Positions 17,873 to 35,190 of a stretch of DNA of 64,000 nucleotides are shown in pieces. The stretch is from positions 434,001 through 498,000 of the forward strand of contig NZ_CP044227.1 in assembly GCF_008727735.1 (NCBI RefSeq). Direction: 5' to 3'. The notes below the pieces were generated by a model. The model was not told where the DNA came from and ran no database searches. It saw only the letters and a list, made by a program, of their open reading frames with translations. The position numbers were made by a program, and so were the translations under genes. The first letter of the stretch is position 1. Each line of letters begins with the position of its first letter. Origin of the DNA: Flintibacter sp. KGMB00164. Lineage in GTDB: Bacteria; Bacillota; Clostridia; Oscillospirales; Oscillospiraceae.

Positions 17873-18040
17873 CTTCGCAAAAAGCATAAGCTGATGGATG
17901 GAAAAAATGTAAATTTTATTCATTTTGCAAATGGCCACGGTCGGATGCGGATGAAAAGACTCCGGCGGCACGGAGCTAATCTCGATGCGGTGGTGCTTAT
18001 GCTTTAGGATCTGCTGAATTACAATAGACTGGAAAAAGGA

Positions 18041-18108
18041 TTGCGTGGAAGAAAACGAAGGAGCTATAATACCACTGGAAGTAAAATGTCAGAACTGGAG
18101 CGTGACAT
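18041..18108 (+). promoter_or_regulatory. Promoter with operator-like dyad for the tandem DUF262 gene
   Basis: TTGCGT (18041-18046), an 18-nt spacer and TATAAT (18065-18070) form a good vegetative promoter. The exact dyad ATGTCA-N11-TGACAT (18086-18091/18103-18108) lies just downstream, where a bound repressor would cover the expected transcription start region. No regulator gene is adjacent. The remainder of the 17735-18133 gap holds the divergent siderophore promoter and no gene. Confidence 0.6.
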
Positions 18109-18133: not shown

Positions 18134-21100
18134 ATGATGCCAAATGATATCGATTCGGCCCTGGAAACGGCGGGACCACGAATTCTGGATACGGCGCAGC
18201 TATTGAAGTGCTATGCGGGGAATGAACACTCGCTTCCTAGGTTGGAACTGCCAAATTTTCAGCGGGATTATGTCTGGGGACCGGATCAGTGGGGACAGCT
18301 CTGGGAGGACCTGGTGGAGCTGTCTGATGAGAACGGGCAGCACTTTATGGGCAGCCTGACGCTGCAGAGGACAGGAAGAACTTTTCAGGTTCTGGACGGT
18401 CAGCAACGGCTGACCACCGCTATGGTGCTGCTGGACTTTCTGGAAGCCCATGTAGGGGAACAGTCATGTAGCCTGGGAAAACTGTTTGTAAATGCTAACG
18501 TCTGTTATCAGGATGTTCTGGGACAAGAGGAAGAAGCGGAGGAGGTACAGAGTAAGCGGTCCGCTGCCGAGAAACGTTACCAGGAGATCTTTGAATATTT
18601 TGCCAAGCGTCATGCCGTTGCGGGATATCCGAATCAGCGCCCACTTCTTAACAAACTAAAATGCCGCTTTTTCTGGCTGGTGGACGAAATTGGATCGGAG
18701 AATAACGAGCACAGGACCTTCGAACAGCTCAACGCCACGGGAAAGCCGCTGGCCTATGCAGATTTTCTCCTGAGCTATCTGCTGGAGCTTCACCAGCAAG
18801 ACAGCAGTTCTCTCACAGTAGGAGAGGTGAAAGCACAGTGGGAGAGGCTGCTGGCAGACATCTCTCGGGGAGAGTTATATGAGGCGGAAGAGGCCCTGGT
18901 CCTGGAAGAGGACGGGGATGATGCCGAGGATGGGAATACAGATGAATCGGAGACTGGGGAGAATATTTCCGACAAGACGGAAACGCCCGGGGGAAAGAAC
19001 AACGCTGGAGAGGACACCGGAAATAAAGAGGCAGACCAGACGGCAGAAAGGGATGGCATCCACCAACCGCTGAAACTGAAGAAATTTCTCAACGCCCTGG
19101 GGGCAGTGACTCTGATCTGGGGGGGAAGCGTGCCCGAAACAGTGGAGAGCTTCCAAAAGACCATGTCGCTGCTGTGCGGAAAAGCGCCGGAAGAACTGAA
19201 GGCCGAAGAGATCCTGAACGTGCTGAAAAGGTGGGCTGCTCATTATCTGGCTCTGACCAATCCTCTTTCCAAAGCGTACGCTCACAGCACCTTCGAGATG
19301 GAGCGGTACTATCTAAGTGTGTTGCACACGTCGGCTTTGCCTATGGCCATGCGTGTGCTGGACAGATTTCAAAAAGGAAAGTATCAGCAAGAGCAGGTAA
19401 AGGCAATTCTTGGAGCTGTAGTGAGGTTTTCCCTCTATCAGAGAATTTACGTTTCCCGCAGCGGCAGCGGCCTGAAAAGCAGCAGCCGGAAGATCATGAT
19501 GCTGGATTACGTTCTGGAAGCTTTGGAAGCAGGCAGGAAATTTCCGCTGACCATGCAAAACGTCCTGGGTGTCATTATGGGGGAGGTGCCCTGGCATATT
19601 ACAGAGGGGCGGTTGCAGGAAGCACCCTATTCCTCGTCTGTAAGTAAGGTCCTCTTGTGCATAGCCTATGACCGGTGGGTGGATCAGCATCCCGGCAATA
19701 AACGGATTCCAGAGTTGGAGCGGGAAGTCGGACCATTCCAAGTGGAACATATGGTGGCTCGTAATCTGCCGGACGGTGCCTTTGGCCAATACGGCTTTAA
19801 CGTCAGTAGCGTGGACCAAAGTAGGAACTTGATTTTGTTGGAGCAGAAACTCAACAACAGTCTGAACAACCTAACCCCGGAGAAAAAGATGGGAAATGAA
19901 GGATGGCCAAGCTCCCGTCTGTACGGATATTATACGGACCTTTCTACGTTTCCGAAAAAGGATGGCTGGTCCGGTCTGTTTGAAGCCCAGAAACATCGGA
20001 TGAGCGACCTTTGGGAGAGTTTCCAAAGCTATATGGGCAGCCCGAACGATCCCATTCCAAAGGATATGCGGGCAGACAAGTACCCTGTGCTCTGGGCCTG
20101 CAAAAAAGCGGACATCCCCCAGCGTGTGGAGCCGGCATGGGGAAAAGGAGAGAACAAAGAACCCACACAGCAAAGGAAGCTCTATTCCCTAGACAAGGAC
20201 TTTATGTATCAGTTGGAGCCGAAAAAAGAAGCAGAGGTCCAGTCGTTCTACTACTATCAGAGGTCCTTGGGGGAAAACAATCACTCGAGGCAGAAGAAAA
20301 ACAAACAGGACGAAGAGCCTAATACCAAGCTAAACATGATCGGGCAGATGTTTTTCGCCATTTTAAAGTATGCTCACTTTGAGGCGGTAGACGGAAGTGA
20401 TAGCCGGGCAATTGGTTCAGCACCACTGTATGAATATGTTGCATCCCTTACACAGGAGGATCCGGTCTCACGGATGCTGGCGATCACAAAATCGGACCAA
20501 GAGGAGCCTGTGATCCTGATTCCCAAGAAAGATCAATCCGGCAAAATAAAGTGGGTGAAGCTGTCTGCTGTTTGGGAGACGGTTGAAAAGGATCCGGAGC
20601 GGGGTGTCATCTGGTTCAATAGCAAGTTCTCTGCCAGCGATTTGTGCAGGCGGTTGGAGCGGGTTTATGAACACATGGTTCAGAACCCGGAAAGGAAGGT
20701 AACTTTCAGCTTCTGGGTGGAAGTTAGAAGTGCCGTGGTTCAGAGTGTGGGCGGAAAACTATACTATGCGCCCTATATCAATGTGGGAGATCCGGAAGCC
20801 TACCGGAAATTCCTTGAAAGCAAAACTGAAACCAATCAGCCGCGGTTGTCTTGCTCTGAGGTGCAGCCTGTGGAGAAGTGTTGGTTCCGGGTGGAACAAA
20901 AGGGAATTGAGGACCTTTTGAAGTTCCATCTGACTATTCCGGAGTACCAGCGCCGCTATGTGTGGAATAGCAGGAACTGGCAGGAGATGCTGGACTATAT
21001 CATGGAGCTGGGCTTTGCCGGGAAAGACAGCATCCCCTATGGTATGATAATTCTCTGCAAAGACCGGAATGGCGGCTCTTACGCAGTGGTGGATGGCCAG

Positions 21101-22486
21101 CAGCGGCTGACCACCCTGGCAAACTTCTGGGAATACGCCTGTGGAATATTCCCTGCACAATGGGAGCTGCAGAAATACGCAGAGATTCAGGGCTGCCTGC
21201 AGAAAGGGCCTGGGGCTTTTTTGCTCGGACTTTTGAAAAAAGTCCGGTTTACGGTGCTGTTTTTGGAGGGAGACGACCTGCCTGTCACCTGTCCCTATCA
21301 GGTGTTTTCCGCCATCAACGGAAAAGGTAAGAAACTGACCACAGCTGAGAAAATGAAAAATTTGCTCTTTGAGAGGTTGGAAAAGAGAAATCTGGATAAT
21401 GACGAAAATAGAAAATTAGTGAGCGCGCTTCTCCGGAATATACGTTTTCCCAAGGCCTGGCTGGAGATGCAAAAAAAAGAGCACATTTCTGATGAGATGT
21501 TGTACGGGGAATGCAAGACCGCTCTAGTCCGTCCTGGAAGTAATCCGTTGAATGAATTTCTTATCTATGGTAAGGTATTCCGAAAATATCTCGACGGAAG
21601 CCGGTCAACGATGGACCAGGCACTGCAAAGGGAACTGTTGTTTTACCGTAGCCTGGGTGTGACCACAGGGGATGCTCTAGTTTTGAGTTGGCTGACTTCT
21701 TTGAGCGAGAAGGACGCGGCAAAGAATCTGAAAAAGCTCAATATGCTCTACTTTTTGCTGTATGTCATGGACCGAAACGGAAACGACAAAAAGAGTATTA
21801 ACAGTAAGTTGCCTCGGCTTGTCGGTAGTCAGGAGGCGCTGACTATCCGTTGTCAGAAACCGACACTGACGCTGCTCAATGAGTCTCTGTGGCGGGATGA
21901 TGATAAGGGAATCCAAGCGGTGTGGAAGGATTTCGTGTGTACCTATGACCTGGGTGGAGCGAAGAAGTCGGTGGCCCGCTTCCTACTGCTTCGGATCGAG
22001 TGCTGGCTGGGCTTGTCACAAACGGCTCTGAACAAGGCGCTGAAAGGGGAATGGGCTCCGGAGGTGGAGCATATCCATCCCATCAGTGATCCGATTCAGG
22101 AACTTCATATGAACTGTCTAGAAAACATCTTTCTGCTGGAGAAAGTTATCAATATTTCTGTCAGTGACCGGAAACTAATGGATTTGGACGGCGGAAAGAA
22201 AAGTAAAGATGGGAAAAATAAGAGTGAAAAGTCTGGAGGAAAACTGGCCGAAGGAGGAAAAAAATCGGGAGGCGGCAGGAAGTTTTATTCCGACAGCAAG
22301 CTGGTGATGCCTGGAATGTTCTATGATAATGAGGGACCCAGGTGGTTCAGTCGGGAAGGTACCTACGGCAAGGTGGAGGCCGATAAGCGCATGGAGGAAA
22401 TCTGGAAACGGATTGAAGAACAGTTTCGTGACGATATAAGCAGTATCCTTCCACCTCAGAAAAGCTGCGCCGGCCTAAACAAATGA
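18134..22486 (+). CDS. Tandem GmrSD-like protein: two DUF262-DUF1524 modules in one chain
   Basis: 1450-aa protein, probably a type IV-like restriction or anti-phage factor. DUF262 (GmrS-like nucleotide-binding/hydrolysing fold) occurs at about residues 37-110 (LPNFQRDYVW, VLDGQQRLTT) and again at about 932-1010 (IPEYQRRYVW, VVDGQQRLTT). Each is followed far downstream by a DUF1524/HNH-like nuclease: VEHMVARN near 536 with SRNLILLEQKLNNSL, and VEHIHPIS near 1310 with LENIFLLEKVIN. An acidic low-complexity insert lies at about 253-312, an unassigned domain at about 640-930, and a Lys/Gly-rich linker near 1350-1385. ATG 18134 is 7 nt after GAGAGGA. Canonical GmrSD has one copy of each domain. 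No methylase or partner gene is adjacent. Confidence 0.85.
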   Translation: MMPNDIDSALETAGPRILDTAQLLKCYAGNEHSLPRLELPNFQRDYVWGPDQWGQLWEDLVELSDENGQHFMGSLTLQRTGRTFQVLDGQQRLTTAMVLLDFLEAHVGEQSCSLGKLFVNANVCYQDVLGQEEEAEEVQSKRSAAEKRYQEIFEYFAKRHAVAGYPNQRPLLNKLKCRFFWLVDEIGSENNEHRTFEQLNATGKPLAYADFLLSYLLELHQQDSSSLTVGEVKAQWERLLADISRGELYEAEEALVLEEDGDDAEDGNTDESETGENISDKTETPGGKNNAGEDTGNKEADQTAERDGIHQPLKLKKFLNALGAVTLIWGGSVPETVESFQKTMSLLCGKAPEELKAEEILNVLKRWAAHYLALTNPLSKAYAHSTFEMERYYLSVLHTSALPMAMRVLDRFQKGKYQQEQVKAILGAVVRFSLYQRIYVSRSGSGLKSSSRKIMMLDYVLEALEAGRKFPLTMQNVLGVIMGEVPWHITEGRLQEAPYSSSVSKVLLCIAYDRWVDQHPGNKRIPELEREVGPFQVEHMVARNLPDGAFGQYGFNVSSVDQSRNLILLEQKLNNSLNNLTPEKKMGNEGWPSSRLYGYYTDLSTFPKKDGWSGLFEAQKHRMSDLWESFQSYMGSPNDPIPKDMRADKYPVLWACKKADIPQRVEPAWGKGENKEPTQQRKLYSLDKDFMYQLEPKKEAEVQSFYYYQRSLGENNHSRQKKNKQDEEPNTKLNMIGQMFFAILKYAHFEAVDGSDSRAIGSAPLYEYVASLTQEDPVSRMLAITKSDQEEPVILIPKKDQSGKIKWVKLSAVWETVEKDPERGVIWFNSKFSASDLCRRLERVYEHMVQNPERKVTFSFWVEVRSAVVQSVGGKLYYAPYINVGDPEAYRKFLESKTETNQPRLSCSEVQPVEKCWFRVEQKGIEDLLKFHLTIPEYQRRYVWNSRNWQEMLDYIMELGFAGKDSIPYGMIILCKDRNGGSYAVVDGQQRLTTLANFWEYACGIFPAQWELQKYAEIQGCLQKGPGAFLLGLLKKVRFTVLFLEGDDLPVTCPYQVFSAINGKGKKLTTAEKMKNLLFERLEKRNLDNDENRKLVSALLRNIRFPKAWLEMQKKEHISDEMLYGECKTALVRPGSNPLNEFLIYGKVFRKYLDGSRSTMDQALQRELLFYRSLGVTTGDALVLSWLTSLSEKDAAKNLKKLNMLYFLLYVMDRNGNDKKSINSKLPRLVGSQEALTIRCQKPTLTLLNESLWRDDDKGIQAVWKDFVCTYDLGGAKKSVARFLLLRIECWLGLSQTALNKALKGEWAPEVEHIHPISDPIQELHMNCLENIFLLEKVINISVSDRKLMDLDGGKKSKDGKNKSEKSGGKLAEGGKKSGGGRKFYSDSKLVMPGMFYDNEGPRWFSREGTYGKVEADKRMEEIWKRIEEQFRDDISSILPPQKSCAGLNK

Positions 22487-22490
22487 AAGA

Positions 22491-22544
22491 ACACGGGCTC
22501 CGGAAGAATTAGATTCTTCCGGAGCCCGTGTTTTGACCTTTTGT
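22491..22544 (+). terminator. Terminator of the tandem DUF262 gene
   Basis: A perfect 19-bp stem, acacgggctccggaagaat and its complement, with a 3-nt loop, followed by ttttgacctttt. It starts 5 bp after the stop codon. Confidence 0.9.
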
Positions 22545-22559
22545 GGGAAGCAGCGCCTG

Positions 22560-23250
22560 CTTCAAAATTTCTTAGATGCCCAGGATTGCTGCTGGATTTT
22601 GAGTGGAAGAAGGATTTATTCGGTGTGTTTTCAATGTGGGAGCGAAGCAGATTGTATGCATACGTCTCGTCGCTTGCCAGCATGAACTGCAAAACTGCTG
22701 ATGCGACAGAATATTGTTGACCATTTACACCGAGGGCTGCTTCTGGTAAAGATAAGAGGCATAGGAGTGAGAATAAAACACTTTATGCTCCGGAAGAGCC
22801 ATGCGATTTCCTCTGGTCAAAAGAAATATCTTGTGGAACTTTTGGTCCAGTTCGTTGACATCGTCCCAGCAAAACCATCATACTCGAAAGCCACTGCGAG
22901 GAATGTTTTCCACAGTCCCTCTGTAAGCAGACAGTTGAGACCTTATTTGAGCGGGGTGGGATCATACTGCACAGAGTAAATAAAGTCATTCGTGCTGCCG
23001 GTGAGATGGAGTAGGTCCATGCCATTGTGTTTCAGCAGCCGGCAGGCCTCCGATAACAAAATGCTCCCGGAAATAGGGGCCACCGCTAATTTTTGTGGAA
23101 TACAGCCTGCTTTCTGCTATTGAGTACTCTGACTCAATAGGTTGCTGGTGACAGATACAATTCTCTGTTCTGCAGTTGTTATAGGCAGAGATGTATCTTG
23201 CGTATGCTGAAAGCATAGAAAGATCGGAAGATCTAAAAATGAGACCCCCG
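22560..23250. other. No intact gene; possible decayed coding sequence on the minus strand
   Basis: Frames are short and lack ribosome sites. On the minus strand between about 23050 and 22780 one frame reads RLLKHNGMDLLHLTG, NDFIYSVQYDPTP, a stop, then LLTEGLWKTFLAVAFEYDGF, which looks like coding sequence broken by a stop. I cannot assign it to a family. It marks the left start of the degraded accessory region. Confidence 0.35.
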
Positions 23251-23254
23251 ATTA

Positions 23255-23327
23255 TGATGTACCTGATGGGATTCGCACCCACGACCTCTTGGATACGAAC
23301 TGAACGCGCTCCCAAACGTGCGAGTCA
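23255..23327 (-). pseudogene. Decayed tRNA-Ala copy
   Basis: The 3' two-thirds of the intact tRNA-Ala at 35796-35871 is recognisable: acctgatgggattcg, then cccacgacctct, and gaacgcgctccca. Differences fall in the T-loop, the anticodon stem (GGAT.CGAAC changed, loop now TTCGTAT) and the acceptor arm, which no longer pairs; the 5' end (D-arm and acceptor) is lost. No functional tRNA can form. Its orientation matches the intact gene 12.5 kb away, as expected for a duplicated integration target that has since decayed. Confidence 0.75.
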
Positions 23328-23586
23328 TATTAACCCCAAAGTGAGGCCGAAAAATAGCGAAAACAAAAATAAACAGCCTAAAATCAGCAGAACAGTGAGT
23401 ATCTTTGTTATATACGAGGTATTCAATAGCAAAATTTTGCGATTAAAGATGCTTTCTTATGGACAAATACTTGAGTGGTTGCGCAACTCAAGTCGGGGGC
23501 ACTGCGTTACCCCCCTCTGCAATAAACATACGCTTCAAAAGTTTTACGAAGGATTATGACTTAAGGAAAGAAGGGAGCAGAATGTG

Positions 23587-23830
23587 TCAGAAATTATGCT
23601 ATCTGACTATTTTTACGGGGACGAATCTGAACAATTCACCTACTTCCGTATTCCTCAACTGCTTGATTACAAGCCAACGTTTCAAACACTTCTCCACAGA
23701 CGTGAAACTTTTGTATGGTATGCTGTTAGACCGCATGAGCCTGTTTGTCAAGAACAACTGGTATGCGGTGCCGCCTCCCCTTTTTTACCAGGAAAATGTT
23801 CCCTATAAAACCGTGCAAAGTGGCTTTATT
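23587..23830 (+). pseudogene. RepA_N-type replication initiator fragment, frameshifted
   Basis: One frame reads MLSDYFYGDESEQFTYFRIPQLL from about 23599, the conserved opening of RepA N-terminal-domain initiators of plasmids and conjugative elements. The neighbouring frame then continues with FKHFSTDVKLLYGMLLDRMSLFVKNNW (about 23680-23760), the next block of the same domain. At least one frameshift separates them, and the sequence after it is no longer alignable. Only the first 60-70 residues of the family survive. It is a remnant of a mobile element. Confidence 0.8.
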
Positions 23831-23839
23831 TTGCCTTAT

Positions 23840-24394
23840 AATCTCAAAAAGAAAAGACTGCTGGTGAAAAATGGAATGATCTATTTCTCTTTTTCGCTGA
23901 AATTTGACAACATATTGCAAATGAGAGAATTTTGTGCTATAATTTTATTAAAATTTCACTATAAACCAAGCGCTTTGTATAAATGCTTCGTTAGTATGTC
24001 GATTTTGTGAGAAAGCGGTGTTGTATTTTTCAGGACAGACGAAGTCATATAAAAGGCGCTAGAAATTTTACGCGAACACAACCCGGACAGGTACAGGTTA
24101 CGATACCAATCAACATGACGAGGAGGATGTACAGGCCGTCCTGGCAGCTTTGTATATAAATTTCAAATAGATTGGAGATGAAGAATAATGGGAGCTATAT
24201 ACCTGAGAGCGGGCCGAAGATTGAATATGCTTGGGCGCGCTCTGGCGCTCGTGTTGACCACGATGGCCAGGTGGTTAACCGAGACAACTATGTCATTGCG
24301 GGCGTCCCCTGCCCGCGGAGCGGTGTAAGCATGACCGCGCGGAGTTAGTTCCGAGCACGCTCGGAAATCCAAGAGAGAAAGGAATTATAACAGT
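23840..24394. other. Gene-free spacer with fragmentary frames
   Basis: Between the RepA remnant and the lectin/SLH gene there is no complete gene. A frame around 24185-24340 (IEYAWARSGARVDHDGQVV) has codon use like a coding fragment, but I do not recognise it and it has no proper start. The last 30 nt supply the ribosome site (AGAGAAAGGA) of the next gene. Confidence 0.4.
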
Positions 24395-26971
24395 ATGGCA
24401 CAACAACGCAGAAAACGGACTCTGTACAGGAGTCTGGGAGCTTGGATACTGACCGGCGCCCTGGCAGCGGGTATGCTGCCCGTCGTATCCATGCCCGCCT
24501 CGGCGGCTATGGGGCAGTATGAGAAGGCAGACGGCATAATGTGGCTTCAAGAAAATTCGTTTTTGATATCAGAGGATACGAAAACAAGTGCTGGATTGAC
24601 ACCGGTGGATAAAACTACCTTTATAGAACCCAACACAATTAAAATGGGTGGTTCTGTCGATGGAGATACAAGTGCCCCTACTGCGTCTCGCAGTGATACG
24701 GTGACCATCACGAGCAAACACGCAATTGACTGGTCACAAAGCTTTGAACTGCAAATACACTTTGAAAATGATGGTTTGCCGGACGGTATGGCCATCAGCT
24801 TTCACAACGACCCCAACTACAATGGGAGTAAATGCGGAAATGGAGATTTGGGTGTTTATTCCTTTGGGGACAACAAAGGTGTAACGAATGCAGCTATTTT
24901 TGAGGTAGATACATTCAATAACCACAATTACCCTGGATCCGGACAGGGAGCTGCCAGTGATACGGCCTTCGCTAATGAAGGCGATAATGCTTGCCATTTG
25001 GGATTCGCTCTGACAAATGAGAACGGAGAGCTAAAGTCAGACACAGTCCAAGTTAGTAAAGCGAATCCCAAGCTTGCCCGCCAAGGCGAAAACATCGTTA
25101 CTATTACATGGGATGTCGATGCGCACCAGGCAACCTTGTCTTTTGAAGATACCTCAGGTGAAGGCATCAATGAAACTTTAACGATTACGGATTTTAATCC
25201 CAAAACACTGTGGGCAGATAAACCGGTTTATATGACGATTTCCGCTTCTATCCATCAGGACAATCTCCATGGCAACCGTTGGGGCAGCTATTCTTTGCGG
25301 GTCGATAGCTTTGCGTATACTGGTCTGGAGCCCGAGGAATCTGCCGAATATCTGGTGTACCGCGACGGCAAAATGGACTCTAAACCGGTGAAATATGATT
25401 CCAACAACACGCAGACCTGGCCCATGCCCGGCGACAAGGTGGTGGCCGTACACACAATGTGGAATAAGAATAGCAGTAGCAAATACATCTCCATCCCCAT
25501 CCGTGTGCCGGAGGCCCGGATCTCCGACAGTAACAGTGGATACAGTGTGGTACAAAAACTGACCCCTACTGATTTGAAGGGTACCATCGGAAGCGACAAC
25601 ATCTTCAACGATGCGATGTCAGATTCCGCCCTCTCCACCGCCACCTTTACCTTCCCTGCGACCGACAACAGCGCGGAGGAACAAAAGAAGACGGTCGAGT
25701 ATACCTACACCATCCCCGAAGGGATCAAAGAGAAGTATGTCATCGAAGACAAGGTGACCATCGGTTCTCCTATCATGACCCAGTATACCTTCTACAACAC
25801 GATCAATCTGGGTGGTCTGCCCACCGTCTCGGCCCCCAGTGTGCAGCTTGAGAAGGGCTCCTACGGCGGAAGCTTTAATCTGGAAAACGATGTGACCTAC
25901 GCTAACTACGGCGGCAACAAGGACAATACCACGCTCAAGATCACCAATGCGGAGGGCCAGGAGGTCAGTACCATCGACACCAACAATGTGGGTACCTACA
26001 AGATCACTTATACGGTAACGGACTCCCGTTTCCATGACGCGGTGACCAGCATCGAGCGCACCATTACCGTGACCGACAGCAGCAGTGGCGGCAGTACCGG
26101 TGGCGGTGTTACCACCAAGTATACACTGACCTATGAAAGCAATGGTGGTACCACTTTTGCCGCTGAACGGTATGCTTCCGGCACTAAGGTCGAACTGACC
26201 AAGACACCCCATCGCGACGGTTATGTCTTTACCGGCTGGTATTCTGATGCCGAGCTCTCTCAGCCAGTCACCAGTGTTACCATGCGGAAGAACATGACTG
26301 TCTACGCTGGATGGGAGAAGACCGGAACCTCTGATCTGTTGAACACGGAGGAGCACATGGCCTACCTTAGTGGGTATGATACCGGTCTGTTTGGGCCTGA
26401 TAACAACATGACCCGCGCTGAGGTGGCTCAGATGTTCTATAGACTCCTGCTGGAGAAGAATGTCCCGATCACCGTTTCGTTTACAGATGTTGATGCCGAT
26501 GCCTGGTATTCACATGCTGTCAATACTCTGGCATCCATGGGGATTGTAACCGGCGTAGGAGACAATCAGTTCGATCCTGAGCGTTCTATTACACGGGCTG
26601 AGTTTACAGCAATTGCCATGCGTTTTGCCGATTTGGATGTCAACGGGAATAACATCTTTTCCGATGTGAGCGCCAATGATTGGTATTACAATCAGGTGGT
26701 GGGTTCTGTTAAGTACGGTTGGATTACCGGGTATTCCGATGGGACCTTCCGCCCCAACAACACGATCACCCGCGCAGAGGTGACGACAATTGTCAATCGT
26801 ATGCTGGGCCGTGCTGCGGACGAGCAGTACGTAGACAGCCATGTTGACCAGCTGTGCGTGTTCCCTGATGTGCTGTCGGGTCACTGGGCTTACTATGAGA
26901 TCATGGAGGCCACCAACCCCCACAATTATACCCAGGCCAGTGGTGTGGAGGACTGGACAAGTCTCAAGTAA
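24395..26971 (+). CDS. SLH-anchored surface protein with L-type lectin-like domain
   Basis: 858-aa exported protein held on the cell wall by three C-terminal SLH domains. The signal peptide covers residues 1-38, ending PASAAM. An L-type lectin-like beta-sandwich (about 45-310) shows DGLPDGMAISFHNDPN, AAIFEVDTFNN and NIVTITWDVDAHQATLSF. An Ig-like segment (about 470-565) leads via a Ser/Gly linker to one InlB B-repeat (YTLTYESNGGTTF to YAGWEK, about 573-645), then SLH units from about 650 to 810 with repeated FxDV...WY...G.G.F.P...ITRAE. The tail WAYYEIMEATNPHNY is shared with the other SLH protein here. Role is inferred to be glycan binding at the surface. ATG 24395 follows AAAGGA by 12 nt. 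Confidence 0.9.
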   Translation: MAQQRRKRTLYRSLGAWILTGALAAGMLPVVSMPASAAMGQYEKADGIMWLQENSFLISEDTKTSAGLTPVDKTTFIEPNTIKMGGSVDGDTSAPTASRSDTVTITSKHAIDWSQSFELQIHFENDGLPDGMAISFHNDPNYNGSKCGNGDLGVYSFGDNKGVTNAAIFEVDTFNNHNYPGSGQGAASDTAFANEGDNACHLGFALTNENGELKSDTVQVSKANPKLARQGENIVTITWDVDAHQATLSFEDTSGEGINETLTITDFNPKTLWADKPVYMTISASIHQDNLHGNRWGSYSLRVDSFAYTGLEPEESAEYLVYRDGKMDSKPVKYDSNNTQTWPMPGDKVVAVHTMWNKNSSSKYISIPIRVPEARISDSNSGYSVVQKLTPTDLKGTIGSDNIFNDAMSDSALSTATFTFPATDNSAEEQKKTVEYTYTIPEGIKEKYVIEDKVTIGSPIMTQYTFYNTINLGGLPTVSAPSVQLEKGSYGGSFNLENDVTYANYGGNKDNTTLKITNAEGQEVSTIDTNNVGTYKITYTVTDSRFHDAVTSIERTITVTDSSSGGSTGGGVTTKYTLTYESNGGTTFAAERYASGTKVELTKTPHRDGYVFTGWYSDAELSQPVTSVTMRKNMTVYAGWEKTGTSDLLNTEEHMAYLSGYDTGLFGPDNNMTRAEVAQMFYRLLLEKNVPITVSFTDVDADAWYSHAVNTLASMGIVTGVGDNQFDPERSITRAEFTAIAMRFADLDVNGNNIFSDVSANDWYYNQVVGSVKYGWITGYSDGTFRPNNTITRAEVTTIVNRMLGRAADEQYVDSHVDQLCVFPDVLSGHWAYYEIMEATNPHNYTQASGVEDWTSLK

Positions 26972-30296: not shown

Positions 30297-30510
30297 TTGG
30301 GGGAATGGTTTCAATCGTATTGCGAGCGAGTGGAGTTAGGGGCACTATTGGAACAATGGGATATGTAACGCAATTTACCCTTGCCCCCCAATAAGATTTC
30401 TCATGGAAGCAAGCACAAAGTTTGATAGCGTTGTAAAAAGGAGCATGAATGACAGGCCTCCGTAGCGTCCTAGACCTGCGGTGGCTGCGGTTGCCCTGTG
30501 TGCGCTGGTA
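30297..30510 (+). pseudogene. Second zinc-ribbon (DUF4379-like) protein fragment with in-frame stops
   Basis: One continuous frame reads LGEWFQSYCERVELGALLEQWDM, stop, RNLPLPPNKISHGSKHKV, two stops where family members have WW, RCKKEHE, stop where W is expected, QASVAS, stop, then GCGCPVCAGKIS. All motifs of the zinc-ribbon unit are present in order in one frame, so the damage is mainly nonsense mutation of Trp codons. It closely parallels the fragment at 27205-27569. Confidence 0.75.
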
Positions 30511-30636
30511 AGATCAGTAAAAACAGGCCGGCGCGGTATCAGGCAGCGCTGGCGAAGGTTTGACCATGACGACAGACAAGCTCATTATTCAACCCGAAAG
30601 GGTAAATATATTTTATTTTACAGAGGAAGGAATGTC

Positions 30637-33600
30637 ATGAAAAAGCGAATAGTAGCAGTATTTTTGGGTATATGTATGATAGTCAGCTTTCTGCCTGTCA
30701 GTGCATTGGCGGTAGATGATCCGATGGATAACGGCCTGGAAAATGTAGTCCCGACCTCACCGTCTGTTGGCAGAGAGGTCTGGATCGACGGCATAAACGG
30801 TGATGATGATAATAACGGATCGTCCAAGGACAAACCTGTCAAGACCATCCAGAAAGCCATGGAACTGGCCGGAGAAGGCGGTACCATCATTGTTAAGGAT
30901 ACAGTCACAATAGAGGATGAAAATAATTTGGTGCTGGAAAATGTCACCATTAAGAGAATGGATGATGACGCAACCGGTGCCTGGGATGAAATTTTGATAA
31001 AAAACTCTTCCGTAACACTGAAAAATATCACGCTTGACGGTAACAAGGATGGGCAACCAGCTGAAAATGAAAAAGATGGTTATTTATTGAATATAACTAA
31101 TAGTAACGTGACAATTGAAGACGGCACCGTGATATGCAATTACGCGGGGTACGCTGCGATGTATGTGTACGGCTCTGATGTTACGATGAACGGCGGCGAG
31201 TTTACAGGTAATGAGGCACATCCGAACGGCGGTAATTCATACGGTACCGTATGTATTACAGATGACTCTACATTCGTTATGAATGATGGCTCTATTCATG
31301 ATAATACTGCTTATTCAGAAGGGGCGGGCGCATTTTACATCTGTTATGATAACTCTGCAAAATTGGACATACACGGGGGTGTAATTACCAAAAATAGCGG
31401 GAAGCGTGGTGCTATTTATAATTGGGGCGGTGTTTTAACGATAGATGGCGGTGAGATCACCAAAAACGAGGGCAATCAAGCTGGCGCCATTGGAATGTAT
31501 GGTTATCGCACACAAGATTTCTATTTGCCTAAAACAACCATATCTGGAACGGAAGAGAGTCCCGTCATCATCGCGTCAAATGACGGCGCAGCAATCGACG
31601 TAAGTGGCGGAACATTGAACATCACGGGAAAGGTTGAGATAACTAATAATTCTGGCCTCTACATTGAACCAGGCAACGTAACAATAGGAGAGGGCGTTAT
31701 TCTTTGCAACAATAGAAAATCAACGAGCTGGGATATTTGCTTCTATGAAGGTACCCTTACTCTGCCGGATGCCGCAGGAATGAAACAAACATATGGAGAC
31801 AGCGGATATTTTATTGATGGCTGGTATCGTGACGATTGGGAAGCTACAGTAGAGAATACACTTGTTGCGGTTGACCAGCCGCTCGTGGCTACAGGCTTTC
31901 ATGGTGTTCACTACGTACTCGTTGCGGCGTATACAGCTCATCGTGTCATCTATTATAATTATCAATCGGGTACTGTGGGAGCAGAACTTCCAACAAGCGG
32001 ATTGCCAGTTCAGCCTATTGATACAAAAGCTTATTTGCCGGGAGATACAGCGCCTCTGAAGCAGCCGTCCAAGACGCGATTTGTAGGACCGAAAAATTCT
32101 GATCCGGATGCACCAATGGGCGTATGGACCTTCGAGGGGTGGAAGTATAATTCCTGGAATGGAATATATGGAACTGGCTCTGAATATACAGTAGAAAACT
32201 ACGTGGATGGTTCTGTCACCATGGACGCGCCATATTTGGTGAAACGGCCAGATACCTCGTGGGGCAGTAATGGTACAGGTGTTATGCTCACCGGCATCTG
32301 GGAGTGGAGCCAAGAGGACGTCCCTTGGTACTATGAAGTATACTACGAGACCTTCAATGAGTATGGTGGAACCCAATGGAATCTGTTGGCCCAGGAAGAA
32401 TGTGGGCCCACAGATCCTACAGCCAATGTTTCTATCGTTCCTGAGAAAATTGTAACAACGCATCAGAACGAACTCGAACAAAATGATATCCTGACCGGCG
32501 ATCCTGAGCAGCTTGGTACGCACTATGTCTTTGATGAAAACTATCCGAGCAACTACAGCCAAAAACAACGACTAAGTGCACAAGCCGGAGACGCTTCAAA
32601 AGAGAACCCCCTGAAAATCTACTTCAAGTCTGCTGAACACAAGATAACGTATGAATATGAAGGAGACGTTCCGGACGGGGCGACAGATGAATTGCCTGCT
32701 CAGAAAACCGCGCGCTATCGGCAAACGGTGAACTTGGACGAGCCTGAACTGATAGGGTATACCTTCTCCGGGTGGAGCGTAAAAGAGCCGAATGGAGCCC
32801 AGAAACTTTTGGAAGATGGCGAACTCACCATGCCCAACACAGACGTCACCCTGGTGGGTTCCTGGACGGAACGAGACCCGGCCGTGATATCCCCGGCTGA
32901 CATGACCGTCTACATGGGCGGTGAGGCTGGTTATGATGGAATCCTTGACGCAAATGGTAACGTGACATCCAGCGACAGCCTGCCGGAGCCGTTCTTCAAA
33001 ATCGACTTGCCGGGTGTGGACCCGGAGGACACCATTTATTATGTTATTCTTACGGCCGAAAAGGAGTACGATGACAATTGCTATTATTCTGACTATTGGC
33101 AGCTCCTCCCCTGCGGCGAGGGGACGGATCTCTATCGATCGATCTTCTTTAATTGTTATATGAGTTCAGGCGAAGACGAACAAGAAATAGAGCTGTCTGG
33201 CCCTCCGATCAGGTTTACACAGGGGAATGACGTCAAAACAACCGACACATTCACGCCCGGCGAAAACCTGCACCAGACGCTGACCATGGAGATATGGGAG
33301 AATCTGGCCACGGCGGATATGGCAGCGTTGTACTACAGCGGTAAGGACAGTAACGATGAAGACATTAACGGTGCATGCAAAGTTGCATTCCAGCCAGGCA
33401 CCCTGACTGTCCGCGGCACCACCGAGAATCCGCAGTATGCCGAGATAAATGCCGAGAGTATAACGGAAGGCACGATCAGCGCAGCGGCCCCGGAGGGGAC
33501 AACATATACCTACTATGTAGATGGTCAGGATATCCCTGTTTGGGATGACGCTTTGGAAGGTGAAGATGGCGGGGGCATGACCAACGACATGGATATCGCC

Positions 33601-35190
33601 CTGCTGGTGGATGATATCATCAACAGCAGCGGCACAGACCGCGAGACTGCGCTGAAAGACAAAGCAGAGGAATACTTTGAGCAACAGGGTATTGCGGCAG
33701 ACTATTCCTACCAGTTCAAGTATCTGGACCTGGTGGACCGGAACAACGGCAATGCCTTGGTAAATGCGTCGAATCCTGTGACGGTATCCTGGCCGATCCC
33801 GGCGGGAGTGGAACTTTCTGATGAGATCAACTTCAAGGTCTTGCACTTCAAGGACATGAACCGGGAGGACAGCGATCTTTCCGGCTGTACGGTAGAGGAA
33901 ATCACACCGACCGTAGAGAACGGATATGCCACCTTCTCCATTGCGCCTAAAACTGCGGTCGGCGGCGGTTTCTCCCCCTTTGCTCTTGCCTGGGGGAAAA
34001 AGGAACCTACGCCTGCTACCTACAAGCTGACCTATCATGCAAATGATGGAACAAATCGAACCAGTGCCACAAGCCATACATCTGGTGCAGAGGCGGTAGT
34101 TGCGAACAGCTTGTGGAATCGTACCGACTATGTCTTTACCAGCTGGAACACGGCGGCAGATGGCAGCGGAACTTCCTATACTTCTGGTGCTTCTATTACA
34201 ATGACCAGCAGTATAGAACTCTACGCTCAGTGGCGATATACAGGCGGTACCGTTGATCCTGATCCCGATCCTACGGAGCACACTCTGCGGTATGAGACCA
34301 ATAGCAGTGAGATGGTCCAGTCTGAGACAAAGAAGGTATCCTGGACGAAGAAGTATGGGGATCTGCCGACTCCCCAGCGAGATGGCTATACCTTTGCAGG
34401 CTGGTACCGAAACAGTACTCTGACTATGCCTATCACTGGTGACGTAAAGGTCTACGGCACTGTGACCATCTATGCCAAGTGGAACAAAACTGTGGTTGAC
34501 CCCGATGACACGGGCGTGTCCGACTGGCTGGATACTCAGGATCACCGGCTGTATCTGGTGGGCTATCCCGATAGCACCTTCGGTCCCGACCGGAACATGA
34601 CCCGTGCCGAGGTGGCCCAGATGTTCTATGCCCTGCTGCTGGATCAGGATGTAAGGATTACCCAGACCTTCTCTGATGTGCCCGCTGACGCCTGGTACAC
34701 CACGGCGGTGAACACCCTGGCCAGCCTGGGCATGATGGACGGCTATCCCGACGGTACTTTCCATCCCAATGCCCCCATTACCCGGGCGGAGTTCGCCACC
34801 GTAGCCCTGGCCTTTGCCTATGAGCCTGAGAAGGCCTCCTGCGACTACTATGATGTGTTCTACAACACCTGGTACTACCCCTATGTGGCCCAGGCAACCA
34901 GCTATGACTGGATCGGCGGCTACCCCGACGGTAGCTTCCGGCCCAACAACTTCATCACCCGTGCCGAAGTGACGGTCATTGTCAACAATATGTTGGGCCG
35001 CAGCGCAGACGAGCGATACATTGACCGCAATGCAGATAAGCTGGTGTATTTTACAGACCTGACGGACAAGTATTGGGCTTACTACACCATCATGGAGGCC
35101 ACCAACAGTCACGACTATACAAAAGAAGGCAACACGGAGTCTTGGATCAAGCTTAATTACATGCAAAATTATAAGGGCCTACAAGCTTGA
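30637..35190 (+). CDS. Large SLH-anchored surface protein with beta-helix and InlB repeats
   Basis: 1517-aa exported protein. The signal peptide MKKRIVAVFLGICMIVSFLPVSALA is followed by a DUF1565-like start (VWIDGINGDDDNNGSS...TIQKAMELAGEGGTIIV) and a right-handed beta-helix with repeated N-G-G/D-G-S turns (about residues 45-410). Next come InlB-type B-repeats: HKITYEYEGD..FSGW (about 670-750), YKLTYHANDG..YAQWR (about 1128-1203) and LRYETNSSE..YAKWNK (about 1212-1287). Three SLH domains follow (about 1292-1470; GYPDSTFGPDRNMTRAEVA, GYPDGTFHPN, GYPDGSFRPN), and a tail WAYYTIMEATN shared with the lectin protein. ATG 30637 is used: GGAAGG lies 5-6 nt upstream and the signal peptide begins there. 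Confidence 0.9.
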   Translation: MKKRIVAVFLGICMIVSFLPVSALAVDDPMDNGLENVVPTSPSVGREVWIDGINGDDDNNGSSKDKPVKTIQKAMELAGEGGTIIVKDTVTIEDENNLVLENVTIKRMDDDATGAWDEILIKNSSVTLKNITLDGNKDGQPAENEKDGYLLNITNSNVTIEDGTVICNYAGYAAMYVYGSDVTMNGGEFTGNEAHPNGGNSYGTVCITDDSTFVMNDGSIHDNTAYSEGAGAFYICYDNSAKLDIHGGVITKNSGKRGAIYNWGGVLTIDGGEITKNEGNQAGAIGMYGYRTQDFYLPKTTISGTEESPVIIASNDGAAIDVSGGTLNITGKVEITNNSGLYIEPGNVTIGEGVILCNNRKSTSWDICFYEGTLTLPDAAGMKQTYGDSGYFIDGWYRDDWEATVENTLVAVDQPLVATGFHGVHYVLVAAYTAHRVIYYNYQSGTVGAELPTSGLPVQPIDTKAYLPGDTAPLKQPSKTRFVGPKNSDPDAPMGVWTFEGWKYNSWNGIYGTGSEYTVENYVDGSVTMDAPYLVKRPDTSWGSNGTGVMLTGIWEWSQEDVPWYYEVYYETFNEYGGTQWNLLAQEECGPTDPTANVSIVPEKIVTTHQNELEQNDILTGDPEQLGTHYVFDENYPSNYSQKQRLSAQAGDASKENPLKIYFKSAEHKITYEYEGDVPDGATDELPAQKTARYRQTVNLDEPELIGYTFSGWSVKEPNGAQKLLEDGELTMPNTDVTLVGSWTERDPAVISPADMTVYMGGEAGYDGILDANGNVTSSDSLPEPFFKIDLPGVDPEDTIYYVILTAEKEYDDNCYYSDYWQLLPCGEGTDLYRSIFFNCYMSSGEDEQEIELSGPPIRFTQGNDVKTTDTFTPGENLHQTLTMEIWENLATADMAALYYSGKDSNDEDINGACKVAFQPGTLTVRGTTENPQYAEINAESITEGTISAAAPEGTTYTYYVDGQDIPVWDDALEGEDGGGMTNDMDIALLVDDIINSSGTDRETALKDKAEEYFEQQGIAADYSYQFKYLDLVDRNNGNALVNASNPVTVSWPIPAGVELSDEINFKVLHFKDMNREDSDLSGCTVEEITPTVENGYATFSIAPKTAVGGGFSPFALAWGKKEPTPATYKLTYHANDGTNRTSATSHTSGAEAVVANSLWNRTDYVFTSWNTAADGSGTSYTSGASITMTSSIELYAQWRYTGGTVDPDPDPTEHTLRYETNSSEMVQSETKKVSWTKKYGDLPTPQRDGYTFAGWYRNSTLTMPITGDVKVYGTVTIYAKWNKTVVDPDDTGVSDWLDTQDHRLYLVGYPDSTFGPDRNMTRAEVAQMFYALLLDQDVRITQTFSDVPADAWYTTAVNTLASLGMMDGYPDGTFHPNAPITRAEFATVALAFAYEPEKASCDYYDVFYNTWYYPYVAQATSYDWIGGYPDGSFRPNNFITRAEVTVIVNNMLGRSADERYIDRNADKLVYFTDLTDKYWAYYTIMEATNSHDYTKEGNTESWIKLNYMQNYKGLQA

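What the first reader, a model, noticed from the sequence alone, without database searches (positions are those of the whole stretch)
18134..22486. One protein with two complete GmrSD-like restriction modules
Canonical GmrSD has one DUF262 (DGQQR) and one DUF1524/HNH-like domain, together or as a pair. This 1450-residue chain carries DUF262 twice (near residues 40-110 and 932-1010) and DUF1524-like motifs twice (VEHM near 536, VEHIHP near 1310), separated by an unassigned region of about 300 residues. The copies are diverged. It may work as a built-in heterodimer, one half sensing and the other cutting. It stands alone with its own promoter and an exact ATGTCA-N11-TGACAT dyad. Seen: motifs and dyad. 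Known: GmrSD and relatives restrict modified phage DNA. Inference: this is a defence protein with a built-in dimer.
Basis: partly seen in the sequence, partly recalled or inferred. Interest (0 to 1): 0.66.

Follow-up and report, generated by a model that had tools for sequence, protein, structure and literature searches.

The report
Double GmrSD-like restriction enzyme, one chain
A bacterium encodes a very large protein that looks like two complete DNA-modification-sensing cutting enzymes, each with its own energy site and its own cutting site, built into one chain, where the known relatives use one such unit or two separate proteins.

Summary
One uninterrupted 1450-residue frame (18134-22486) carries two GmrSD-type modules, A (about 36-635) and B (about 911-1450), joined by about 275 residues of unknown fold. 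DUF262 is significant in both halves. DUF1524 is weak in the window itself, but it passes the Pfam cut-off in both halves of a relative, both halves' models align with SspE, DndI and BrxU, and DGQQR and the H-N-N nuclease residues are kept in both. The fusion is not an error: a second intact copy sits in Candidatus Gemmiger (51% identity, whole length). A third, in Oscillibacter valericigenes, is cut by an insertion element, its two frames open into the element and in the same phase. It is the only frame with two DUF262 matches (E 1e-8) listed from 249 phylum genomes. Best reading: a single-chain, tethered pair of type IV (modification-dependent) restriction modules. It would work like the two-protein TgvAB, GrwAB and ECOR17 GmrSD systems but is built differently: fused, with a nuclease in both partners. 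The dyad is at chance level. No activity was tested.

The parts
18134..22486 (+). Gene of the 1450-aa double GmrSD-like protein
   Evidence: Open frame; whole-length homologue L027:5145-9290, 51% identity
18239..18793 (+). Module A DUF262 (GmrSD_N), residues 36-220; DGQQR at 18395-18409
   Evidence: PF03235 E 1.5e-28 on the half alone; conserved columns kept
18794..19603 (+). Module A helical region, residues 221-490, with a low-confidence acidic stretch at 253-293
   Evidence: AlphaFold2 model m83dd55450089
19604..20038 (+). Module A DUF1524 / His-Me finger, residues 491-635; E538 H539, N565, N574; A542 where most outside proteins have P
   Evidence: PF07510 22.6 bits (just under cut-off), above cut-off in Gemmiger A and Oscillibacter A; fold alignments; columns
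20039..20863 (+). Middle region of unknown fold, residues 636-910; patch FWVE...G...YxNxGD shared by three members
   Evidence: Residues 640-922 alone: no Pfam family above cut-off and no PADLOC, NCBIfam or PHROG family; alignment of three members; model confidence low
20864..21388 (+). Module B DUF262, residues 911-1085; DGQQR at 21092-21106
   Evidence: PF03235 E 2.1e-22 on the half alone; ParB-like fold alignments
21389..22018 (+). Module B helical region, residues 1086-1295 (FLLYVMDRNGN stretch unchanged in Gemmiger)
   Evidence: Model mb938c398687b; alignments
22019..22483 (+). Module B DUF1524 / His-Me finger, residues 1296-1450; E1312 H1313, N1331, N1340
   Evidence: PF07510 30.3 bits in Oscillibacter B, 19.3 in Gemmiger B; strand-strand-helix around these residues in the model; SspE C-terminal domain alignment; columns
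18041..18070 (+). Possible promoter: TTGCGT, 18 nt, TATAAT
   Evidence: By eye; not listed by the scanner; Gemmiger copy has TTGGCA-17-TATAAT upstream (sequence printed, read by eye)
22488..22534 (+). Hairpin of 20 pairs, likely terminator

Best explanation
A single-chain type IV (modification-dependent) restriction enzyme made of two fused, diverged GmrSD-type modules. Shown: both modules are present in one chain; both keep the NTPase motifs (QR, DGQQR, FxxxN) and the His-Me nuclease residues (H, N, N); the double chain occurs, under constraint, in more than one genus. Inferred from relatives: the two DUF262 domains bind and hydrolyse NTP and sense modified DNA, and this releases the DUF1524 nucleases. 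Inferred: A and B pack on each other as the two protomers of BrxU do, or the two proteins of TgvAB or GrwAB are thought to do, so that the chain is a permanently tethered heterodimer with two nuclease sites, able to cut both strands in one binding event. Because A and B cannot part fully, any NTP-driven opening must occur within the chain. The middle region would be the linker and a possible extra recognition or regulatory domain of B. Likely target: DNA of phages with modified bases or backbone.
For: DUF262 in both halves. DUF1524 above cut-off in both halves of Oscillibacter. The models of A and B, made separately, both align with SspE (A: Z 16.9, rmsd 18.1, 535 aligned; B: Z 18.8, rmsd 16.2, 461), DndI 9jfl (A: Z 16.9, rmsd 7.7, 502; B: Z 18.2, rmsd 8.6, 444) and BrxU (A: Z 12.9, rmsd 15.1, 403; B: Z 10.8, rmsd 16.1, 380); the best unrelated rows are at 4.4 for A and, ParB-like, 6.7 for B. 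Of columns at least 95% identical in 54 outside proteins, A keeps 24 of 24 in window, Gemmiger and Oscillibacter; B keeps 21, 22 and 22 of 24; no loss is a DGQQR, H or N residue. Second intact fusion in Gemmiger, 51% identity over 1338 aligned codons, dN 0.46 against near-saturated dS 1.99, each of seven segments with pN below pS. Third copy interrupted by an element with a 7-8 bp target duplication, frames in the same phase. A and B each form supported clades with the same branching, (window, Gemmiger), Oscillibacter. Best PADLOC model for both halves is HEC-06, a GmrSD-like family. Two-protein precedents in which both DUF262 proteins are needed: TgvAB (PMC11411939), GrwAB (PMC12137116), ECOR17 GmrS1/GmrSD2 (PMC12373910) (passages read). 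BrxU is an intertwined dimer (PMC8565348, passages).
Against: No activity, complex or substrate was tested. The full 1450-residue chain exceeds the modelling limit, so A-B contact was not modelled. Window B by itself does not match PF07510, and window B lacks three of 24 otherwise conserved columns (D955, W1092, K1360), so B could be a weaker enzyme. Module A has A542 where 50 of 54 outside proteins have P, though tandem-pair A proteins with EHIHA also exist. Foldseek lists DndI for both halves but BrxU and SspE for A only; its TM-scores normalised by the query are low (0.26-0.47 for the DndI, BrxU and SspE rows). The aligner's own note says Z under about 13 may be a common arrangement in helical proteins, which covers the BrxU rows. 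The gene stands alone, with no defence gene seen among ten flanking proteins scanned with Pfam.
Confidence: 0.62

Rival explanations
1. Division of labour: one half (B with the middle region) senses or regulates, the other (A) cuts, as in TgvAB and GrwAB where only one partner has a nuclease.
For: In the two-protein relatives only one partner has DUF1524 (PMC11411939, PMC12137116; passages). Window B has lost 3 of 24 conserved columns and does not match PF07510. B carries the extra middle region.
Against: All DGQQR and H-N-N residues are kept in B of all three members, and Oscillibacter B passes the PF07510 cut-off, which a retired nuclease would not be expected to show.
Confidence: 0.22
2. 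Two independently acting GmrSD enzymes on one polypeptide (beads on a string), widening the range of recognised modifications rather than forming one heterodimer.
For: Each half is a complete module of single-protein GmrSD type; single-protein members such as BrxU act alone (PMC8565348, passages).
Against: The two halves were on one chain in all three members found. Neither half turned up alone as a close homologue in the searches run.
Confidence: 0.1
3. Fusion of an older two-gene TgvAB/GrwAB-type operon (nuclease protein followed by partner), not an independent arrangement.
For: Same order, nuclease-type protein first and longer partner second, as the tandem pairs L061-L064. AU tests on the DUF262 tree do not reject A with pair-A (p 0.095) or B with pair-B (p 0.226).
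Against: One search places pair-A and pair-B, and pair-A, away from A and B; the two pair-B proteins scanned (L061, L064) show no PF07510 while B here has the nuclease. A plus B as one clade is not rejected either (p 0.28 and 0.31). Origin unresolved.
Confidence: 0.2
4. Sequencing or assembly artefact: two adjacent genes fused by a missing stop or a frameshift.
For: None found.
Against: Second intact fusion at 51% identity in another organism's assembly; single-contig window genome; Oscillibacter frames in one phase on both sides of the element.
Confidence: 0.01

Closest known systems
Single-chain GmrSD / BrxU (type IV restriction, DUF262 + DUF1524)
   Same: Domain order, motifs and fold of each half; BrxU works as an intertwined dimer (PMC8565348, passages).
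   Different: One module per chain; dimer of identical protomers that separates on NTP binding, which a fused pair cannot do fully.
TgvAB of Vibrio cholerae VPI-2
   Same: Two DUF262 proteins both needed; type IV restriction of modified phage (PMC11411939, passages).
   Different: Two genes; only TgvB has DUF1524. Here one chain, nuclease in both halves.
GrwAB of V. cholerae WASA strains
   Same: A DUF262-DUF1524 protein with a DUF262 partner encoded by the second gene, both needed (PMC12137116, passages).
   Different: Two genes; GrwB is described as DUF262 followed by domains of unknown function. Here B has DUF1524, and its extra region lies before, not after, its DUF262.
ECOR17 GmrS1/GmrSD2
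   Same: Doublet of DUF262 proteins that only protect together (PMC12373910, passages).
   Different: Two genes; only GmrSD2 has the HNH domain.
SspE and DndI (phosphorothioate-sensing)
   Same: Best solved-structure alignments for both halves.
   Different: Single module; work with Ssp or Dnd modification genes (DndI paper seen only in a search listing). None of the ten flanking proteins scanned is one.
HEC-06 (PADLOC)
   Same: Best PADLOC model for both halves.
   Different: Single-module length (profiles of 558-569 positions); said to act independently (PMC11411939, passages).

Membership tests
GmrSD superfamily (type IV restriction) | DUF262 domain with QR, DGQQR, FxxxN | tested here: met
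   Both halves
GmrSD superfamily (type IV restriction) | DUF1524 His-Me finger with H...N...N/H | tested here: met
   Residues kept in both halves; PF07510 above cut-off in Oscillibacter A and B and Gemmiger A, below it in Gemmiger B; window A just below, window B not listed
GmrSD superfamily (type IV restriction) | Fold of SspE/BrxU/DndI | tested here: met
   Both halves separately; Foldseek lists DndI for both, BrxU and SspE for A only
GmrSD superfamily (type IV restriction) | Cleavage of modified DNA, NTP-stimulated | not testable with these tools
Canonical single-chain GmrSD | One DUF262 and one DUF1524 per chain | tested here: not met
   Two of each
TgvAB/GrwAB two-gene systems | Two separate adjacent genes | tested here: not met
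   One frame; fused homologues
TgvAB/GrwAB two-gene systems | DUF1524 in only one partner | tested here: not met
   Nuclease residues in both halves
TgvAB/GrwAB two-gene systems | Common descent with GrwA/GrwB or TgvA/TgvB themselves | not tested
   The V. cholerae proteins were not fetched; only tandem pairs of a similar shape were placed, without resolution
SspE / DndI | Neighbouring Ssp or Dnd modification genes | tested here: inconclusive
   Ten flanking proteins scanned with Pfam show none; the remaining frames of the window and the rest of the genome were not searched for them

The most novel reading that the evidence does not exclude
An obligate single-chain GmrSD heterodimer with four working active sites (two NTPases, two nucleases), which has covalently locked the dimer that BrxU must open and re-form, and so cuts both strands of modified DNA by an intramolecular cycle; the middle region would add a new modification reader.
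Probability: 0.3. Interest if true: 0.68.

Novelty: new variant of a known kind. Interest (0 to 1): 0.5.

Why it matters
Why several type IV systems need two DUF262 proteins is left open in the papers read (TgvAB, GrwAB, ECOR17; passages). A natural fusion fixes the stoichiometry and the pairing and keeps all four sets of active-site residues, so each site can be switched off alone in one protein. It also tests the proposal that GmrSD enzymes must fall apart into monomers and re-form to cut (BrxU, PMC8565348): a tethered pair should not be able to.

Tried and rejected
Dyad as an operator: at chance level. Solved-structure search by sequence with the whole protein: no match up to E 10. Plasmids and phages with the whole protein: 49 and 3 records with a match, none covering 80% of the query; the 20 plasmid and 3 phage rows listed cover 12-16%. 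B half alone: 2 plasmid records, 10% covered. Viral contigs: no relative with the whole protein (0 of 3 candidate stretches) or with the B tail (0 of 47); with the A alignment 2 of 45, both short DUF262-region matches. Middle region: no family; a sub-threshold Ferritin-like hit (E 0.1) and a sub-threshold DUF438 hit in A (E 0.003 in the half alone) ignored; the model of the middle is too poor to search by itself.

First belief, later dropped: I took Oscillibacter valericigenes (G270) to hold a natural two-gene version. Searches showed that both contig ends are copies of repeats, that the stop of A and the stop before B both lie inside them, and that the flanks share a target duplication; so it is an interrupted fusion. 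G270 is named by me as strain An890 because its contig C41 and the named contig L028 have the same length (6807) and the same 967-codon frame.

Conservation count: the first version used 47 (A) and 43 (B) of the 54 non-redundant viral proteins; of the 7 left out of both, 5 had no nuclease motif recognised by my pattern, so that version was selected towards motif-bearing rows and gave 24 of 25 for A and 22, 23, 24 of 26 for B. I repeated it with all 54. At a looser 85% threshold the window keeps 29 of 33 (A) and 25 of 33 (B). The structure alignments are the selected ones.

Trees: duplicate rows (L055, L062) were dropped in both; in the long one also L017, the pair-B proteins and pair65_1, and rows were thinned by shared 4-mers. 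The long tree is a quick one (SH-aLRT only) with warnings about long branches. AU tests for A with pair-A and B with pair-A did not finish and were not repeated. One search took 8 of the 10 proteins. In one search the frames were listed for 6 of 8 loci, and for some of them on the side away from the gene; only its BLAST table is used.
Full report
What is there. The frame at 18134-22486 is a single open frame of 1450 codons, present once in the organism's one-contig genome, in which both DUF262 matches at E 1e-8 lie in this frame. Taken apart, residues 1-639 and 923-1450 each match Pfam GmrSD_N (1.5e-28 and 2.1e-22). GmrSD_C is just under its cut-off in A and not listed for window B.

Relatives settle the nuclease question. 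A scan of genome contigs (84,980 species by the tool's description) with two peptide patterns from the B tail gave 386 candidate stretches and 2 relatives: L027, Candidatus Gemmiger excrementigallinarum, and L028, Oscillibacter valericigenes An890. The scan sees only genomes that carry those patterns, so it is a lower bound. L027 holds an intact 1381-residue frame, 51% identical to the window protein from end to end. In these relatives GmrSD_C passes its cut-off in Oscillibacter A and B and in Gemmiger A, and is below it in Gemmiger B (19.3 against 23).

Active sites. I aligned A and B of all three members with 54 non-redundant GmrSD-like proteins of viral contigs and asked which columns at least 95% identical in those outside rows are kept. 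A keeps 24 of 24 in window, Gemmiger and Oscillibacter. B keeps 21, 22 and 22 of 24; the losses are a D, a W and, in the window only, a K. In all six rows DGQQR, the QR of the first motif, F and N of FxxxN, and E, H, N, N of the nuclease are kept. In the window these include R92, H539, N565, N574 in A and R991, H1313, N1331, N1340 in B. So neither half looks like a retired enzyme. An earlier count with fewer outside rows is told under Tried and rejected.

Folds. AlphaFold2 models of A (mean pLDDT 79) and of the middle region plus B (mean 70; the three parts of B mostly 80-95, with poor loops; the middle mostly under 60) were made from alignments of window, named relatives and viral proteins. 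Foldseek ranks DndI (9jfl) first for both (E 3.2e-8 for A, 2.7e-8 for B); its list holds BrxU and SspE for A but not for B. The second look by VIA-align, among Foldseek's own lower candidates, puts SspE, DndI and BrxU at the top for both halves (Z 10.8 to 18.8; rmsd 4.9 to 18.2, whole-chain values being high as the domains stand differently), with ParB-like folds below for B. A and B match each other by BLAST only around the DUF262 motifs (32% over 114 residues, E 1e-9).

The fusion is real and old. Between window and Gemmiger the non-synonymous distance is 0.46 against a near-saturated synonymous distance of 1.99, and each of seven segments has pN below pS; the middle region is the least kept (32% identity) and the six module segments the most (50-63%). 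In Oscillibacter the A frame and the B frame sit at the ends of two contigs. The last 79 bases of each contig recur in three other places each, mostly contig ends, of that genome. The flanks share CATTTTA (7-8 bases), and the two ends share GTAACT-TTCAG with one mismatch as inverted ends. Both stops lie inside the repeats, and the frames on the two sides are in the same phase. The simplest reading is one chain broken by an insertion element (IS66-like by recalled features: GTAA ends and 8-bp target duplication); the element's inside was not assembled. I first read it as a two-gene form and was wrong. On the DUF262 tree (61 rows) and the longer quick tree (81 rows) A and B form separate, supported clades with the same inner order, so the halves have travelled together. 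Whether A and B came from one duplication is open: holding them together is not rejected (p 0.28; p 0.31).

How rare. With the whole protein, 18 of 64 genus genomes had a match, own included, the other 17 with DUF262-region matches only; 2 of 400 family genomes at E 1e-12, own and Oscillibacter; 1 of 394 order genomes at E 1e-15, own. With the B alignment, 1 of 391 class genomes at E 1e-20, own. These samples overlap. A survey with PF03235 at E 1e-8 in 249 phylum genomes found 80 with a match, own included; the window's frame is the only one listed with two matches, and every other listed frame is at most 943 residues. A weaker second copy would be missed. At least five of those 249 genomes carry two adjacent DUF262 genes: four of the shape A with a nuclease motif then a partner of 739-755 residues, one of the shape 434 then 593 residues. 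Of the best 80 viral loci kept from 198, 78 had a DUF262 frame by my motif filter, none double, 2 with adjacent pairs.

Setting. The gene stands alone between a FecCD transporter operon on the other strand and a stretch of short frames with a RepA_N match. In the genus, 8 genomes besides the own have the FecCD gene at E 1e-80. In the closest, homology ends at window position 17892, about 240 bases before the gene, and a different open frame of 429 codons lies there; none of the eight loci, with about 1.3-1.6 kb of flank on that side, has a BLASTN match to this gene. GC of the gene is 0.51 against 0.54 for the window. This fits an acquired accessory gene. A hairpin of 20 pairs follows it. The dyad is chance.

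How it most likely works. From TgvAB, GrwAB and ECOR17 GmrS1/GmrSD2 (passages of PMC11411939, PMC12137116, PMC12373910), some type IV systems need two DUF262 proteins, of which one has the nuclease; in TgvAB and GrwAB mutation of either protein's DUF262 motif, and in all three mutation of the nuclease, abolishes defence. BrxU is an intertwined dimer that NTP binding takes apart (PMC8565348). I infer that the window protein is the covalent version of such a pair, but with a nuclease in each partner. Steps shown: domains, motifs, constraint, fusion. Steps inferred: pairing of A with B, NTP use, target, double-strand cutting.

Novelty. The domains and the two-partner idea are known. In the library searched, the terms 'two DUF262 domains', 'double DUF262', 'DUF262-DUF1524-DUF262', 'duplicated GmrSD', 'tandem GmrSD' and 'GmrSD-GmrSD' gave no paper, 'tandem DUF262' and 'DUF262 fusion' none. 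The text on domain architectures in PMC4619093 (section 12; its figure was not seen) lists DUF4268, DUF4357 and a DNA-binding domain as extras, not a second module. Papers outside that library were not searched. I rate it a new variant of a known kind.

Noticed in passing
L024:1-79 and L025:6729-6807 (Oscillibacter valericigenes An890 contigs): Ends of a multi-copy repeat (inverted ends GTAACT-TTCAG, 7-8 bp target duplication), probably one insertion element, interrupt that strain's copy of the gene.
   Followed up: yes
window 23459-24010 and 22487-24394: RepA_N match (E 4.6e-9) and short frames just downstream, GC 0.44: possibly the remains of a mobile element.
   Followed up: partly
L061-L065 (unnamed phylum genomes), L117 and L126 (viral contigs): Adjacent pairs of DUF262 genes shaped like GrwAB (L061-L064) or TgvAB (L065, L117, L126), two of them on viral contigs.
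   Followed up: partly
L065:2334-3632: The short first gene of the TgvAB-shaped pair carries DUF7834 (E 3e-65) after its DUF262: a possible marker domain for the TgvA role.
   Followed up: no
window 24395-26971 and 30481-35190: Two large surface proteins with SLH domains and Listeria-Bacteroides repeats.
   Followed up: no
L027:9400-10248: A 282-residue frame next to the Gemmiger copy looks (recalled, not scanned) like a PARG-type macrodomain protein.
   Followed up: no
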